Shown piece by piece: positions 3,656 through 62,056 of a stretch of 64,000 nt of DNA. This DNA is from Lachnospiraceae bacterium oral taxon 500. Its GTDB lineage: Bacteria > Bacillota > Clostridia > Lachnospirales > Vallitaleaceae. The notes beneath the pieces are model-generated. The model did no database searches and was not told where the DNA came from. It saw only the letters and a list, made by a program, of their open reading frames with translations. The DNA lies in contig CP027241.1 of NCBI GenBank assembly GCA_002999035.1, positions 2,804,195-2,868,194 of the forward strand, written 5' to 3'. Position 1 is the first letter of the stretch. Each line of letters starts with the position of its first letter. Made by a program: the position numbers and the translations under genes.

Positions 3656-5242
3656 TTAAAAATATTTGGTAATCACCCAATCATGCTCTTTCATATCCAG
3701 TTCGTTTCCGCAATACCGGCAAATTTTACCTTCTAACAGCGACAAACTGCTTCCGCATTTGCTGCATCTGAGGATAGACGGAGCACAGACTGCCTGCGTT
3801 TTGCAGTCTTCCTTTTTTTCAAGGTACATTCTCACCAGTTCTTTTCTGGTTTCAATCTTATTGTTTTTGAATTCCCTAAGCAGCAAAATGGCGCCCACAA
3901 TCGCGGTTTGCACGCCTTCTTTTATTTGGTATGCACTCAGCATCAAAGACAGCGTTTCAATATCAACGACTCCCTGATAATTTTGCAAATGTTCGGACAG
4001 ATCGCAATTTGAAAAGGCATTAACCTCATTTTTGGTATTTGCAAAATGGATGGCGTATATTTTATTTTCAAGCCCGCCAAAAAAGCTTTGAATTGAAAAC
4101 AAGGGATCCTGTTTCCGTACTTTTTCTGCCCATTTGATTTCCCGGTCCCATTCTTTGCGGGAACGATACACCAATTTTTGATTTAAATCCAATTCTTCCA
4201 GCACCGCACTAAAGACAAAAGCAAGCGGCACAAGGAAAAGCATGGCAAGGGTAGCCATCAAAAATCCACCGGCGCCGAGCATAAACGCGCTTACTAATCC
4301 GGCCAAAAACTGCACAAAAACATTCAAGTCCTTGCGATAAAAAAAGGGCATAAAAAATCCTATATTGATGAGCGGCATCATTACCCCCAAGCAAATCCAT
4401 GGGTAAATTAGTTTTCTTATCGCCTGTCGTTTCTCCTCTTTTACCTCAAAATCACGGCGGAATCCAAAATTGGCTACTCTCCCGCTTAAATCTTCAATCG
4501 TAAATTTGGTGCCGCAAAAATCACAGCCGTCAATCAAATTGCTTCTTGATGACACACTGCCGCAATTGGGACATACCACCTGATCTGCGCCGACATTTTT
4601 AGCGGACAAAAACGTATACCGGGCGACTTCCTTATCATATAGCTGTTTTATGGTCCGGTCGCCCTGCCGGTAAGTCCTGATAGCATAAATTTCTTCGTAG
4701 ACATCCGTAACATCATATCTGCCGTCAAAGTAAGTCGCCGCCCTGACGCCATTAGAGCCCTTTGAATAAGAACGTCTGCTGGACTGCAAATCTATTTGGA
4801 TACCCAGCTTTTCCAAACGCCTTTTTTGCAGGTGGATACAATGCCATAGTAACTGGGTCGCATGATTTTGCAGCGTACTGTTGTCTTTATTTCTATCTTC
4901 ATTATTCATAAATTCACTATAAGCTGTCTTAAATGAACTCATGCTCCGCGTCAATTCATCATAATCTTCTACCACAGGATACGACGGAAAAATGAGGCTC
5001 AGCGGAAAGCCTATTTTTCTGCCTAATCGATATTTTTCCTTTACCCAAGCGCTAAAAAACAGGATGGTTCCGGCACTGATCACGATATATCCTACCACCG
5101 CCCCGGCATTGATCTCCTCTGATAATTGGGCAAAAATAAAACAGATGATAAAACCGATCGCGTAAATAATAAGCGGAATGATAAACTTCTTTTTGTTATA
5201 AACTCCAGTTTTTGCAACCGTTTTTGCATTTTTTTCAATCAT
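3656..5242 (-). CDS. Membrane protein with two zinc ribbons and a Tim44-like segment
   Basis: Unnamed protein of 528 residues. The start at 5242 (MIEKNAKT) is preferred because CAGGAG lies eight bases upstream; an in-frame ATG 13 codons earlier has no such site. Two hydrophobic helices lie near residues 20-70 and two or three more near 280-350. One zinc ribbon (CPNCG then CDFCG) sits about residues 225-250. A second (CSKCG then CRYCG) is near the C-terminus. The stretch after the membrane helices, with KQDPLFSIQSFFGG, resembles Tim44-like lipid-binding domains; that match is by eye. Function is unknown. It stands alone between the terminator at 3563 and the repeat array at 5411. Confidence 0.8.
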   Translation of the reverse strand: MIEKNAKTVAKTGVYNKKKFIIPLIIYAIGFIICFIFAQLSEEINAGAVVGYIVISAGTILFFSAWVKEKYRLGRKIGFPLSLIFPSYPVVEDYDELTRSMSSFKTAYSEFMNNEDRNKDNSTLQNHATQLLWHCIHLQKRRLEKLGIQIDLQSSRRSYSKGSNGVRAATYFDGRYDVTDVYEEIYAIRTYRQGDRTIKQLYDKEVARYTFLSAKNVGADQVVCPNCGSVSSRSNLIDGCDFCGTKFTIEDLSGRVANFGFRRDFEVKEEKRQAIRKLIYPWICLGVMMPLINIGFFMPFFYRKDLNVFVQFLAGLVSAFMLGAGGFLMATLAMLFLVPLAFVFSAVLEELDLNQKLVYRSRKEWDREIKWAEKVRKQDPLFSIQSFFGGLENKIYAIHFANTKNEVNAFSNCDLSEHLQNYQGVVDIETLSLMLSAYQIKEGVQTAIVGAILLLREFKNNKIETRKELVRMYLEKKEDCKTQAVCAPSILRCSKCGSSLSLLEGKICRYCGNELDMKEHDWVITKYF

Positions 5243-5410
5243 TTTCTCTTCTCCTGAAAGACTCGACCGCGCCAAAAACAAACAGCCGTTTGTTTAAACG
5301 ACTGCTTGCTTTCTCCCTCATTTTTTATATAGCCCATAAAGCTTATCTCTTATTTGACTCCATTTTAACCCTCATCCCCGAAAAAGTCCATTGGTCAAAA
5401 GACCAGTATT

Positions 5411-5743
5411 CGAAAAAAAATCCGACGTGCGAAATAAAAATCAAGCACCTCTGCCGTGCTTGCACGAAAAGAGGTGCTTGATTTTTATTTCATAGGGATG
5501 ATTCCCTACGACGCCGAAGCCGCAGGTTTCGGCGTGCACGTCGGATTTTTTTCGAAAGCTCCTTTTCCTCCGCCCATGCTTGCATGGAAAGGAGATGTTT
5601 AGCTTTTACTTTCATAGGGATGATTCCCTATGACGCCGAAGCCGCAGGGTTCGGCGTGCACGTCGGATTTTTTTCAAAAGCTCCTTTTCCTCTGCCGTGC
5701 TTGCACGCAAGGAGATGTTTAGCTTTTACTTTCATAGGGATGC
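5411..5743. repeat. Tandem array of about 120-bp hairpin-rich units with a flanking palindrome
   Basis: Units begin at 5448, 5567 and 5689, the third truncated by the end of the phosphoesterase gene. Each unit holds small hairpins: a CGTGC-TT-GCACG stem, an AGGGA-TGAT-TCCCT stem and a CGCCGAA/TTCGGCG stem. In the middle unit the first stem reads CCATGC/GCATGG, a compensatory A-T for G-C change. In addition 5431-5451 and 5471-5491 are perfect 21-base inverted arms, and 5411-5430 is the near-exact reverse complement of 5536-5554. Forward-strand translation of the units gives a repeated peptide, but no independent gene is supported. Confidence 0.85.
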
Positions 5744-6574
5744 TCATTTTTCCGGCTCCACCTCAACCACCACATATTCCGGTCGGTTAAAAATGCGGGG
5801 CACCCGGGTTGATTCCCGCGCCAGTCCCCGGCTGACAATCATCGCCGCACCGGCAAAATCATAGCGCCCGCCGGCATAGCGGGGAAAAATCCCCTGATTC
5901 GGCGCGAAAACACCGTTAATCAGGCCCGGCACCCGCCATTGACCGCCGTGGGCGTGTCCTGCCAAAACCAAATCAAAGCCATAGACCAAATACTTTGTAA
6001 TCTCCTCCGGCCGGTGCGTTAAAAGCACCGAAAACTTGTCCTTATCTCTATTCTTACCACAACGGGCCAGTTCCTTTTCCCATTCGCCGGATGGCGCTTC
6101 CCGGTCGTTAATGCCGGCAATTTGAATGCTTTGTCCATTGACCGCCAGTAAGTCGGTATCGCCCTCTAAGACCGTAATGCCATAGCTGCGTACCATCTGC
6201 CGCAGTCGGTCGATTTCATCCGTCCAGTATTCATGATTGCCGGTCACATAATAAGTCGGATAATGGCTGCCGGCCCACTCTAAAAACTCCTTGGCTTTTT
6301 CTTCCGGCAGTTCATCGTCAATAATATCGCCGCCCAGCAAAAGCACGTCGGGCTTAGTAGCGGCAATTGCCGCCGTCAGCCGCTCCTGCTTTTCTCCGTA
6401 ATCACAGCTGTGCAGGTCAGCCACAAAGCCGATGGTGACCGGCTGCGTCACTTTGTCGGTCGACAGCTTATAGTACACCGTCTTCATCCGCACATCAAAA
6501 GCCGCCGCGCCCAGTGCCAGCAAAGCCACAAGTCCCGCCAGCCAATATATCTTTTTTCGCTTTCTCTGAATCAT
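5744..6574 (-). CDS. Membrane-anchored metallophosphoesterase (YkuE-like)
   Basis: 276 residues of the calcineurin-like phosphoesterase superfamily. A basic N-terminus and one hydrophobic segment (residues 9-24) suggest a signal anchor with the enzyme outside. All metal and catalytic motifs are present in order: DLH (about residue 52), GGDIID, GNHE, THR and GHAHGGQ. By family it hydrolyses phosphomono- or diesters with two metal ions; YkuE-type proteins act at the envelope. The substrate is unknown. Its 3' end runs directly into the repeat array at 5411-5743, so the last repeat unit forms its immediate trailer. Confidence 0.9.
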   Translation of the reverse strand: MIQRKRKKIYWLAGLVALLALGAAAFDVRMKTVYYKLSTDKVTQPVTIGFVADLHSCDYGEKQERLTAAIAATKPDVLLLGGDIIDDELPEEKAKEFLEWAGSHYPTYYVTGNHEYWTDEIDRLRQMVRSYGITVLEGDTDLLAVNGQSIQIAGINDREAPSGEWEKELARCGKNRDKDKFSVLLTHRPEEITKYLVYGFDLVLAGHAHGGQWRVPGLINGVFAPNQGIFPRYAGGRYDFAGAAMIVSRGLARESTRVPRIFNRPEYVVVEVEPEK

Positions 6575-16686: not shown

Positions 16687-17910
16687 ATGCAGGTTGATAT
16701 TTTGGAACTGATGAAAACACTCTTTCCGGCGCAGGGTGCACAGGTGCTCTTAGTCAGCGAACTGCCGGAGCTATCCGGCCGGATTGATTATAATCTGCGG
16801 CAGCAGCTGTTTCGAAACTTTGATTATTCCGCTTATTTAAAACAATTATCGGCTCAACTGGAAGCCGGCACGCTGCATCATATCGAAGATGATTTTCGCT
16901 TTTCTTATTCGATTTTGGCAATTCCCCAGACCGCTGAGGAATACGCCGGACAGTACCTCTTTATCGGACCGGTTCGGTTTCACAACATCACCAAAGGCGA
17001 GTTTCAAAAAGTAGCGGAAGAAAAACGGCTCCATCCTGACCTTTATCAAAAGCTGATTGACTTTTACAGCGGCCTGCCGGTTTGGTCGTCCTTTGATAAT
17101 TGGAGCGCTGTTTTGGCCATTTTCAGTTCACTGCTGATGGGCGGTGCCAACTTCCATACCAAGAGCATTTTATATAATGATACTGATGCGAAGCAGGCGG
17201 TGGCCGAGCATATTTCTCCGGAACAAATTCAGCTTTCGCGAAGCACAATTGAAGCCCGTTACCAAGCCGAAGAGCTGCTGCTGCGGGCAGTGGCAGCCGG
17301 CAATGTAGAAAAGGCACTGACTGCCGTCAGTCAAATCAAGCAATATAAAATGCTGCCCCGTACCCCTGACCCGGTGCGCAATACCAAAAATACCACCCTG
17401 ATTTTAAACACTCTTTTGCGCAAGGCCGTCCAGCAGTCCTGTGTTCATCCGATTTATATTGATGCGCTGTCCCGGGATCTGGCCGTTCAGATTGAGTCCG
17501 CCTCCAGCCTTAGCGCCCTGGATACTCTGCCGACCAATATGATCCGAAAATACTGCCTGCTGGTCCGGAATCATTCGCACGGCAAAAATTCGCCGATTAT
17601 TTGCTTCTGCCTTGATTATATTGATTTCCACTATGTAGAAGCGCTCAGCCTGTCGGTGCTGGCTGAAAAATGCGGAGTCAGCGACAGCTACCTGTCCGCC
17701 CTGTTCCGCAAGGAAATGAATATGACCCTGACCGATTATATCCTGCAAACCCGAATAACTCACGCCATTTATCTGCTGAACACAACTCAGCTGCCGATCC
17801 AGACCATTGCCTCCCAATGCGGCTTTGAAGACGGCAATTACTTTACCCGCGTTTTTAAAAGAAAGCAGGGCCAGTCACCCCGGCAATACCGGAAAAGCAT
17901 TAAGGCATAA
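16687..17910 (+). CDS. AraC-family transcriptional regulator (glucuronide operon)
   Basis: 407 residues from the ATG at 16687, which follows GAGGAG at 16672-16677; an earlier TTG (16651) has no ribosome site. Residues 1-200 are an uncharacterised sensor region. The C-terminal hundred residues carry two HTH motifs: LSVLAEKCGVSDSYLSALFR and IQTIASQCGFEDGNYFTRVF, followed by GQSPRQYRK. It is transcribed away from the symporter/beta-glucuronidase operon and probably activates it, using the direct repeats at 16378-16412. The effector is unknown, likely a glucuronide or glucuronate. Confidence 0.9.
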   Translation: MQVDILELMKTLFPAQGAQVLLVSELPELSGRIDYNLRQQLFRNFDYSAYLKQLSAQLEAGTLHHIEDDFRFSYSILAIPQTAEEYAGQYLFIGPVRFHNITKGEFQKVAEEKRLHPDLYQKLIDFYSGLPVWSSFDNWSAVLAIFSSLLMGGANFHTKSILYNDTDAKQAVAEHISPEQIQLSRSTIEARYQAEELLLRAVAAGNVEKALTAVSQIKQYKMLPRTPDPVRNTKNTTLILNTLLRKAVQQSCVHPIYIDALSRDLAVQIESASSLSALDTLPTNMIRKYCLLVRNHSHGKNSPIICFCLDYIDFHYVEALSLSVLAEKCGVSDSYLSALFRKEMNMTLTDYILQTRITHAIYLLNTTQLPIQTIASQCGFEDGNYFTRVFKRKQGQSPRQYRKSIKA

Positions 17911-17946
17911 TCAGTGCAGCTGTCAAAATAGCGATGTTAAAAAAGA

Positions 17947-17996
17947 CTCCGCTTGATAGGATATGTAAGCAAACTTACATATCCTATCAAGCGGAG
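17947..17996 (-). terminator. Strong terminator of the UvrA2 operon
   Basis: Perfect 23-base inverted arms (17947-17969 and 17974-17996) around the loop CAAA. On the minus strand the stem is followed by TC and then TTTTTT, ending the operon that stops at 18021. On the plus strand there is no T run, but the hairpin could still affect the converging AraC transcript. Confidence 0.85.
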
Positions 17997-18020
17997 CTAT
18001 CTGCTGAGTTGAACGGTATG

Positions 18021-30944: not shown

Positions 30945-31111
30945 ACTGCTGTTCCTCTCTTTCCCGGCGTTTCCCGCCGCTGGCTTCTACTTGTTGTGCA
31001 GCAAAGTTAGCAGATATTTAGCTTAATACCACCGGAAAGCTCGCTTTCATGGAAAGCAGCAAGCATAAATATCCATTTGTTTAAGGCTCACACTTATAAT
31101 CCATTGACATT

Positions 31112-31313
31112 TCAGCGAATTACAAATGACTTACCGAAACTGCTGCTGTTTATTAAAATCAGGAATCCTGCATAGCGGAATTCCATTTTCCTACTGCTTT
31201 CAGTATATCGCTTTCCTTGAAAAAAACCATTGATTATATTGTGATTCACATTGCAAAAGTTGCGGTTTTATGATATTGTTGTTACATTAAGAAAATCACT
31301 TGTAATTCGCCGA
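31112..31313. promoter_or_regulatory. Inverted operator-like pair between uxuA and its AraC regulator
   Basis: 31112-31132 (TCAGCGAATTACAAATGACTT) and the reverse complement of 31294-31313 agree at all but three or four positions (core GCGAATTACAA). The copies are about 180 bp apart and inverted, one on each side of the AT-rich centre. Also between them is the palindrome TGTGATTCACA (31240-31250). The rest of 30945-31448 has no gene. Confidence 0.45.
31251..31279 (+). promoter_or_regulatory. Probable promoter of the second AraC regulator
   Basis: TTGCAA (31251-31256) and TATTGT (31274-31279) with a 17-bp spacer, just upstream of the right operator-like copy at 31294. Confidence 0.4.
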
Positions 31314-61872: not shown

Positions 61873-61899
61873 AAAAATTTCCTCCTTTTATTTGGTTAC

Positions 61900-62038
61900 A
61901 GTTCAGACAAGCAGGTATTTCGGAACGATAGGACAGAAGAGCTTGCTCCTTATTGTCCTATCGTTCCGAAATACCTATTTGCTTAACGCTTTCACATGTC
62001 ATTCGCTTTCTGTGAATGACAAGTGGCTTGTCTGAACT
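61900..62038. repeat. Branched palindrome in the bmpA leader
   Basis: Outer arms 61900-61912 and 62026-62038 (AGTTCAGACAAGC and its complement) are perfect. Inside are a perfect 23-base hairpin (61913-61935 with 61954-61976) and a 12-base hairpin with one mismatch (61993-62004 with 62014-62025). The hairpins abut the outer stem, so DNA or RNA could fold into a three-way junction. It ends 28 bp before the bmpA start. Confidence 0.85.
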
Positions 62039-62056
62039 ATAGATTTACCTTATTTA

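What the first reader, a model, noticed from the sequence alone, without database searches (positions are those of the whole stretch)
5411..5743. Tandem structured repeats with compensatory change downstream of the phosphoesterase gene
Three units of about 120 bp each fold into several small hairpins. One stem differs as CGTGC/GCACG versus CATGC/GCATG, a paired change that keeps pairing. A perfect 21-bp inverted repeat and a second long-range inverted copy flank the array. Between the first two units, the three substitutions in the best-conserved stretch are all at third codon positions of a plus-strand frame (MIPYDAEAAGFGVHVGFF), so a coding origin cannot be excluded.
Basis: seen in the sequence. 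Interest (0 to 1): 0.52.

Follow-up and report, generated by a model that had tools for sequence, protein, structure and literature searches.

The report
Tandem Clostridiales-1-like palindromic repeat element
A short non-coding stretch behind a bacterial gene is a three-unit tandem array of a strongly folding palindromic repeat that shares its branched architecture, but not its sequence, with a repeat family spread through the same genome and with a described but unexplained RNA motif.

Summary
The repeat array is real (5411-5743; units spaced 122 and 120 nt) and lies between a metallophosphoesterase stop codon and a promoter-like region conserved in the genus. Unit A folds as a four-way junction: closing stem, long arm capped by GCTTGC, small hairpin, third arm (z -15.6). 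The array has no other sequence copy in its genome or in the collections searched, and both congener genomes lack it at this locus. Its architecture is not alone. The genome holds 158 near-matches to a terminal repeat, ACAGTTCAGGCAAGC (4 for the reversed control), marking ~140-nt elements with the same order of arms, heavy covariation and tandem arrays, plus 16 matches to Rfam RF01699 (Clostridiales-1 RNA), several in tandem. A covariance model built from 12 such elements, without the array, scores unit A at 59.2 bits (background at most 19.4 bits in another 100 kb); a sequence-only model misses it, and RF01699 itself does not report it. In RF01699 tandems, as here, the 5'-most unit is complete and downstream units lack the 5' strand. 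I read the array as a divergent, non-coding, probably mobile Clostridiales-1-like repeat that may also act as a two-way terminator. A coding origin is not supported.

The parts
5411..5430 (+). 5' strand of the closing stem (outer inverted repeat, CGAAAAAAAATCCGACGTGC); present once in the array
   Evidence: 5414-5430 is a perfect 17-nt complement of 5536-5552 and 5658-5674; closes the fold
5431..5491 (+). unit A long arm: 22-bp perfect hairpin with an inner apical stem capped GCTTGC (5458-5463)
5493..5508 (+). unit A small hairpin TAGGGATGATTCCCTA
   Evidence: fold
5511..5535 (+). unit A third arm ACGCCGAAGCCGCAGGTTTCGGCGT
   Evidence: fold
5536..5555 (+). unit A 3' strand of the closing stem, with T7; on the minus strand the mirror strand 5430-5411 also holds a T run
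5416..5550 (+). unit A as matched by covariance model R1 (built without it), full length 1-143
   Evidence: 59.2 bits, E 1.1e-15 in 64 kb, second best in the window
5556..5677 (+). unit B: degenerate long arm (apex CATGCTTGCATG), small hairpin, third arm, 3' closing strand; no 5' closing strand of its own
5678..5743 (+). unit C: degenerate long arm (apex CGTGCTTGCACG) and start of the small hairpin, cut off at the gene's stop codon
5744..6574 (-). calcineurin-like metallophosphoesterase gene ending at the array
   Evidence: Pfam PF00149, E 9.6e-16
5275..5404 (-). genus-conserved stretch downstream of the array: palindrome TGGTCAAAAGACCA, promoter-like TGGACT/TAAAAT, conserved AGCTTT..GCTATATAAA, terminator-like hairpin (possible small RNA gene)
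   Evidence: promoter scan; alignment of 3 species; distribution
61898..62040 (+). element of the ACAGTTCAGGCAAGC family in the same window (one of the 12 used to build R1)
31003..31143 (+). second family element, not in the training set
   Evidence: R1 49.8 bits; sequence HMM E 2e-16
17870..18017 (-). possible third, diverged element with a 23-bp perfect hairpin
   Evidence: R1 35.9 bits; sequence HMM E 0.0098

Best explanation
The array is a non-coding palindromic repeat element of the Clostridiales-1 architecture, grown into a tandem. One unit is a closing stem, a long arm capped by GCUUGC, a small hairpin and a third arm. The complete unit is the 5'-most one on the plus strand; units B and C are later-type copies that lack their own 5' closing strand. 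The single 5' strand can therefore pair with the 3' strand of A or of B, so extra units only add arms inside one closing stem. SHOWN: the anatomy, the absence of the array at this locus in both congeners, a genome-wide population of elements with the same architecture, and tandem arrays of those elements with the same polarity. INFERRED: common descent with Clostridiales-1 elements although the sequence has diverged beyond recognition; spread as a non-autonomous mobile repeat (MITE- or BOX-like); tandem growth by duplication, after which the unstable abutting 3'/5' closing strands lose the 5' copy. At this locus the most likely effect is at the 3' end of the phosphoesterase transcript. Both strands read GUCGGA followed by U7-8 after a very stable stem, so the element can work as a two-way intrinsic terminator and insulate the downstream promoter.
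For: Fold of unit A. R1, built from 12 own-genome elements without the array, finds unit A full length at 59.2 bits on the plus strand and 27.9 on the minus. The GCUUGC cap aligns to the model's cap. Controls: plain strong hairpins in the window reach 13-24 bits, and the best of another 100 kb is 19.4. R1 also finds the 5'-most RF01699 unit of the L140 array at 40.2 bits. RF01699 has the same order of arms and cap (alignment), and the own genome has 16 RF01699 matches, 9 over the cut-off. Caps GCTTGC/GCAAGC: array 3 of 3, own family 10 of 12, RF01699 matches 18 of 22. Tandem polarity: in RF01699 tandems the 5'-most unit scores best in 5 of 5 groups, and identity of downstream units to it is lowest at its 5' end, as in this array. 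Both congener loci lack the array and R1 reports nothing there. Family covariation: 31 of 52 pairs with changes on both sides, 0 of 500 shuffles as high.
Against: A sequence-only HMM of the same 12 elements does not find the array at E <= 10. RF01699 does not report it at E <= 5. With default filters R1 misses it. Most of the 59 bits must be base pairs, since the sequence model is silent and the model's effective sequence number is 1.3, so the score shows shared architecture, not descent; a convergent four-way palindrome could score similarly. The array lacks the ATGAG..CGAAT motif that is nearly invariant in RF01699. The middle hairpin is not a modelled pair in R1. No target-site duplication is evident in the flanks of 9 family elements read by eye. 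No expression data; no transposase was sought.
Confidence: 0.62

Rival explanations
1. An orphan: the local terminator of the phosphoesterase gene expanded by duplication and by template switching that turned imperfect palindromes into perfect ones, converging by chance on the four-arm layout. Unit A's left half is exactly the reverse complement of its right long-arm strand plus its right closing strand with the two small hairpins skipped, as fold-back copying would make.
For: No sequence copy elsewhere in the genome; congener G001 has only a short stretch with a T run between stop codon and palindrome; left half of unit A is unlike B's left half but perfectly complementary to its own right half.
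Against: Cap GCTTGC, order of arms, and 5'-complete/3'-degenerate tandem polarity all match elements that are abundant in this very genome and, for RF01699, absent from the 21 other family members searched.
Confidence: 0.25
2. A gene for a trans-acting structured small RNA present in three copies, selected for its RNA fold.
For: Extreme fold, compensatory change, U-run at the 3' end on both strands; RF01699 was described as an RNA.
Against: No promoter-like site was found inside the array; folding is nearly as good on both strands, as for a DNA palindrome; units B and C lack the closing stem.
Confidence: 0.1
3. A decayed or living small coding repeat (frame MIPYDAEAAGFGVHVGFFSKAPFPPPMLAWKGDV).
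For: Three adjacent substitutions at third positions.
Against: Next substitution changes the residue and unit B loses the frame; no relatives.
Confidence: 0.02

Closest known systems
Clostridiales-1 RNA (Rfam RF01699; Weinberg et al. 2010, PMC2864571, table passage read)
   Same: Closing stem, long arm with GUGCUUGCAC-type cap first, then middle hairpin, then third arm; tandem arrays in this genome whose 5'-most unit is complete.
   Different: Array is not reported by the RF01699 model; its middle hairpin and third arm are short and lack the ATGAG..CGAAT motif; closing-stem sequence differs.
Own-genome ACAGTTCAGGCAAGC palindromic elements (no description found in the paper searches)
   Same: Same order of arms, same cap, same tandem habit, mainly intergenic position.
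   Different: No recognisable shared sequence; inverted ends are ACAGTTCAGGCAAGC instead of AAAAAAATCCGACGTGC.
Pneumococcal BOX elements (PMC3049150, passages read)
   Same: Modular interspersed repeat with paired ends, a variable tandem array of middle modules, strong fold, thought to be mobilised in trans.
   Different: Different sequence and arms; in BOX the middle boxB module repeats between boxA and boxC, here all but the 5' closing strand is repeated.
REP palindromes (PMC3733652, abstract read)
   Same: Intergenic palindromes near gene ends, possibly terminators.
   Different: REPs are 20-40 bp with GTAG or CGTC tags; these are 120-150 nt four-arm elements; tags were not looked for.

Membership tests
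Clostridiales-1 RNA (RF01699) | match to the family covariance model at or above the gathering score of 48 bits | tested here: not met
   no RF01699 match in 351 nt at E <= 5; own-genome list of 16 does not contain the array
Clostridiales-1 RNA (RF01699) | order of parts: closing stem, long arm, middle hairpin, third arm | tested here: met
   fold of unit A against the RF01699 structure line; units B and C lack the 5' closing strand
Clostridiales-1 RNA (RF01699) | GCUUGC cap on the long arm | tested here: met
   array 3 of 3; RF01699 matches 18 of 22
Clostridiales-1 RNA (RF01699) | nearly invariant ATGAG..CGAAT motif in the middle arm | tested here: not met
   present in alignment A3, absent from the array as read
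own-genome ACAGTTCAGGCAAGC elements | terminal inverted repeat ACAGTTCAGGCAAGC | tested here: not met
   array ends are AAAAAAATCCGACGTGC; sequence HMM silent
own-genome ACAGTTCAGGCAAGC elements | match to covariance model R1 of sequence and structure | tested here: met
   59.2 bits full length, filters off; missed with default filters
MITE-type mobile element | terminal inverted repeats and target-site duplication | tested here: inconclusive
   inverted ends present; no duplication seen by eye in 9 family elements
MITE-type mobile element | matching transposase | not tested
BOX element | boxA/boxB/boxC sequences | not tested
   no BOX model at hand; comparison is of organisation only
intrinsic terminator | GC-rich stem directly followed by a T run | tested here: met
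   scan finds + 5528-5545 and - 5462-5442; 2 found against 1.5 expected, so the scan alone is weak; both strands carry T7-8 at the 3' strand of the closing stem

The most novel reading that the evidence does not exclude
Clostridiales-1 is not a single RNA gene but the visible tip of a fast-evolving class of mobile four-arm palindromes that inherit architecture, cap and tandem polarity while arms and ends are replaced wholesale. They invaded this species but not its sampled relatives, and they grow by adding units behind one complete 5' unit that alone keeps the 5' closing strand. The window's array is a sub-family diverged beyond sequence recognition.
Probability: 0.3. Interest if true: 0.7.

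Novelty: new variant of a known kind. Interest (0 to 1): 0.5.

Why it matters
If right, it gives a context to an RNA motif listed since 2010 without function: in this genome it is a repeat that multiplies and forms polar tandem arrays. It also offers a testable population (over a hundred end repeats in one 3.2-Mb genome, one or none in each congener) for asking whether such motifs are selected RNAs or mobile DNA. It warns that covariation alone does not show an RNA function, since palindromic DNA repeats covary too.

Tried and rejected
Sequence homologs of the array: own genome, relatives, family, order, phylum, plasmids, phages, viral contigs, GTDB contigs. All hits outside the array were chance-like: G011 inside a gene, G344 26 nt, G483 46 nt. 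In some searches only two candidates per genome were scored. Rfam hits of the array itself (MIR447, sau-5971 and others) are far below their gathering scores and were discarded. Peptide reading: no relatives. Alignment A1 mixed strands, because loci are in contig orientation, and was dropped for A3. Model R2 from A3 had only 18 base pairs and was not used. One search timed out and was rewritten. Alignment A4 holds both strands of many elements and was not used for pair counts. A note in my notebook gives 10 RF01699 matches over cut-off in the own genome; the list shows 9.

Full report
What was checked. The array is at 5411-5743, immediately after the stop codon of a metallophosphoesterase gene read on the minus strand (5744-6574; PF00149). 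Three units are spaced 122 and 120 nt apart. Unit A has a 22-nt perfect inverted repeat (5431-5452/5470-5491). A 17-nt end repeat (5414-5430) is perfectly complementary to both 5536-5552 and 5658-5674. Unit A folds as a closed four-way junction with z -15.6 on plus and -13.3 on minus and is the best folder among 4258 windows of 150 nt. Folded as a whole on the plus strand, the 5' closing strand pairs with the 3' strand of unit B and encloses the arms of A and B. The compensatory change is real: CATGCTTGCATG in B against CGTGCTTGCACG in A and C.

Is it coding? Between units A and B there are six substitutions in 93 nt, at codon phases 1,2,3,3,3,2. Three consecutive third-position changes are weak evidence, and the following change is non-synonymous before unit B loses the frame. 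The 54-aa frame has no Pfam match, no plasmid relative, and none of 582 candidate stretches in 84,980 genomes was confirmed as a relative.

Is it repeated elsewhere by sequence? No. Own genome: only itself. Relatives: 1 chance hit in 58 others; family: 0 of 21 others; order: 1 chance hit in 391 others; phylum: 1 chance hit in 397 others. The last two scored only two candidates per genome. Plasmids and phages gave no match; an exact 21-mer gave 0 in GTDB contigs (records close to the window's genome may be left out). In two congener genomes the locus has no array. In G001 (L017) the palindrome TTGGTCAAAAGACCAA lies about 35 nt from the end of a phosphoesterase copy that is itself broken; in G002 (L015) the conserved stretch is inverted relative to the gene. 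So the array was gained in this lineage, or lost twice.

What else is in the genome. A survey of 464 kb (400-kb sample plus window) for inverted repeats led to recurrent ends ACAGTTCAGGCAAGC. The whole genome has 158 places within two mismatches against 4 for the reversed pattern. At one mismatch of a 14-mer it has 105 against 0; the two congeners have 1 each (controls 0 and 3), and 22 of the other 93 genomes have scattered matches, at most 5 each. Seventeen end pairs were extracted, of which 12 full elements were aligned; five short or incomplete ones were left out. Each of the 12 has a closing stem and a long arm, usually capped GCTTGC, followed by a third arm; most also fold a small middle hairpin. 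Covariation is strong: 31 of 52 pairs change on both sides, 93.6% of cells paired against 80.4% in shuffles, 0 of 500 shuffles as high.

Link to a known motif. Rfam search of four such loci gave RF01699, Clostridiales-1 RNA, on one element at 28.8 bits, below the cut-off of 48. The RF01699 structure line shows the same order of arms and a GUGCUUGCAC-like cap. The own genome has 16 RF01699 matches at E <= 0.1, 9 over the cut-off; 11 of 96 genomes have any and 8 have one over the cut-off; 0 of the 21 other members of the same family have one. Several lie in tandem. Three of the 12 family elements (L076, L091, L147) carry the ATGAGCAA..TTGCGAAT motif that is nearly invariant in 22 aligned RF01699 matches. 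This ties the ACAGTTCAGGCAAGC family to RF01699 by sequence.

Does the array belong? Model R1, built from the 12 family elements and not from the array, scores unit A at 59.2 bits over its full length on the plus strand and 27.9 on the minus. In the 64-kb window this is second only to a training element. A family element outside the training set scores 49.8 (31003-31143), a possible diverged one 35.9, and plain strong hairpins 13-24 (44500, 45792, 56277). In 100 kb of other sample the best is 19.4. R1 scores the complete unit of an RF01699 tandem at 40.2 and reports nothing at the congener loci at E <= 0.1. Against membership: a sequence-only HMM of the same alignment is silent on the array, R1 with default filters misses it, and RF01699 does not report it. 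The match is therefore one of architecture plus the cap, not of sequence. Caps: array 3 of 3, family 10 of 12, RF01699 18 of 22; this was counted as GCTTGC or GCAAGC with at least two further pairs. In the 464 kb, hairpins capped this way number 13 against a mean of 3.1 over all G-loop-C caps, and 3 of the 13 are this array. That CUUG is a common stable tetraloop is recalled, not tested.

Tandem polarity. In the five RF01699 groups with neighbouring matches (four in the own genome, one in G038) the 5'-most unit scores best, 5 of 5. In the four own-genome groups, identity of downstream units to the 5' unit is low in the first eighth (0.00 to 0.73); in the L136, L137 and L140 groups it is mostly above 0.85 elsewhere, and in the L138 group it is low over much of the unit. 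Seven groups of the ACAGTTCAGGCAAGC family show the same order by R1 score, with two cautions: R1 was trained on the complete units, and in L147 a further copy lies 161 nt upstream of the best one. The array behaves alike: unit A is complete, and units B and C share a different 5' part, with identity of B to A 0.00 and 0.05 in the first two eighths and 0.72-0.95 after.

Position. Of 23 elements or arrays examined for neighbouring ORFs (this array included), 15 overlap no ORF of at least 90 codons and 8 overlap one by more than 20 nt under a crude ORF caller. They are thus mainly intergenic.

How it probably works. The best account is a non-autonomous, palindromic, non-coding repeat that spreads in this lineage and grows in tandem. 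Abutting 3' and 5' closing strands of neighbouring units would make an unstable palindrome, so downstream units lose the 5' strand; this is inference. Locally, both strands carry U7-8 at the 3' strand of the closing stem, so a two-way terminator role behind the phosphoesterase and before the conserved downstream promoter-like stretch is plausible; it is untested. BOX elements of pneumococcus are the closest parallel in organisation (PMC3049150, passages read); REPs are shorter and tagged (PMC3733652, abstract read). Weinberg et al. 2010 list Clostridiales-1 with only a table entry in the main text (PMC2864571, passage read). A search for 'Clostridiales-1' or RF01699 found 5 papers, none with it in title or abstract (listing seen only). 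Searches for the end repeat and for this kind of element found nothing matching (listings seen only, apart from the two papers named).

Noticed in passing
window 5275-5404, minus strand; L017 1265-1415; L015 2332-2480: Genus-conserved intergenic stretch (3 of 3 genus genomes; only three short weak matches in the other 193 of 196 order genomes): palindrome TGGTCNNNNGACCA, promoter-like hexamers, AGCTTT..GCTATATAAA and GAGGGAGA, terminator-like hairpin. It looks like an undescribed regulated small RNA gene; in G002 it is inverted relative to the phosphoesterase.
   Followed up: partly
L042 6459-6612; L057 10249-10447; L017 about 1090: Another inverted-end family, ACTCAACTTTCCC, with large nested hairpins; the end also occurs in the congener G001.
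   Followed up: no
L029 about 1475-1545 (own genome near 2447878): Tandem quasi-palindromes GGTACGGATTTTTTTCCGTACC / TGTCGGATTTTTTTCCG, sharing GTCGGATTTTTTT with the array's closing strand.
   Followed up: no
L058 11979-12087: Two adjacent long near-perfect hairpins, the second capped GCAAGC.
   Followed up: no
window 3656-5242, minus strand: 528-aa reading with zinc-ribbon-like cysteine pairs and no Pfam match, next to the array; not seen between the conserved stretch and the rhodanese-like gene in L017.
   Followed up: no
L017 1441-1740: G001 holds a second, broken copy of the phosphoesterase gene about 2.4 kb from the full one, next to the conserved stretch.
   Followed up: no
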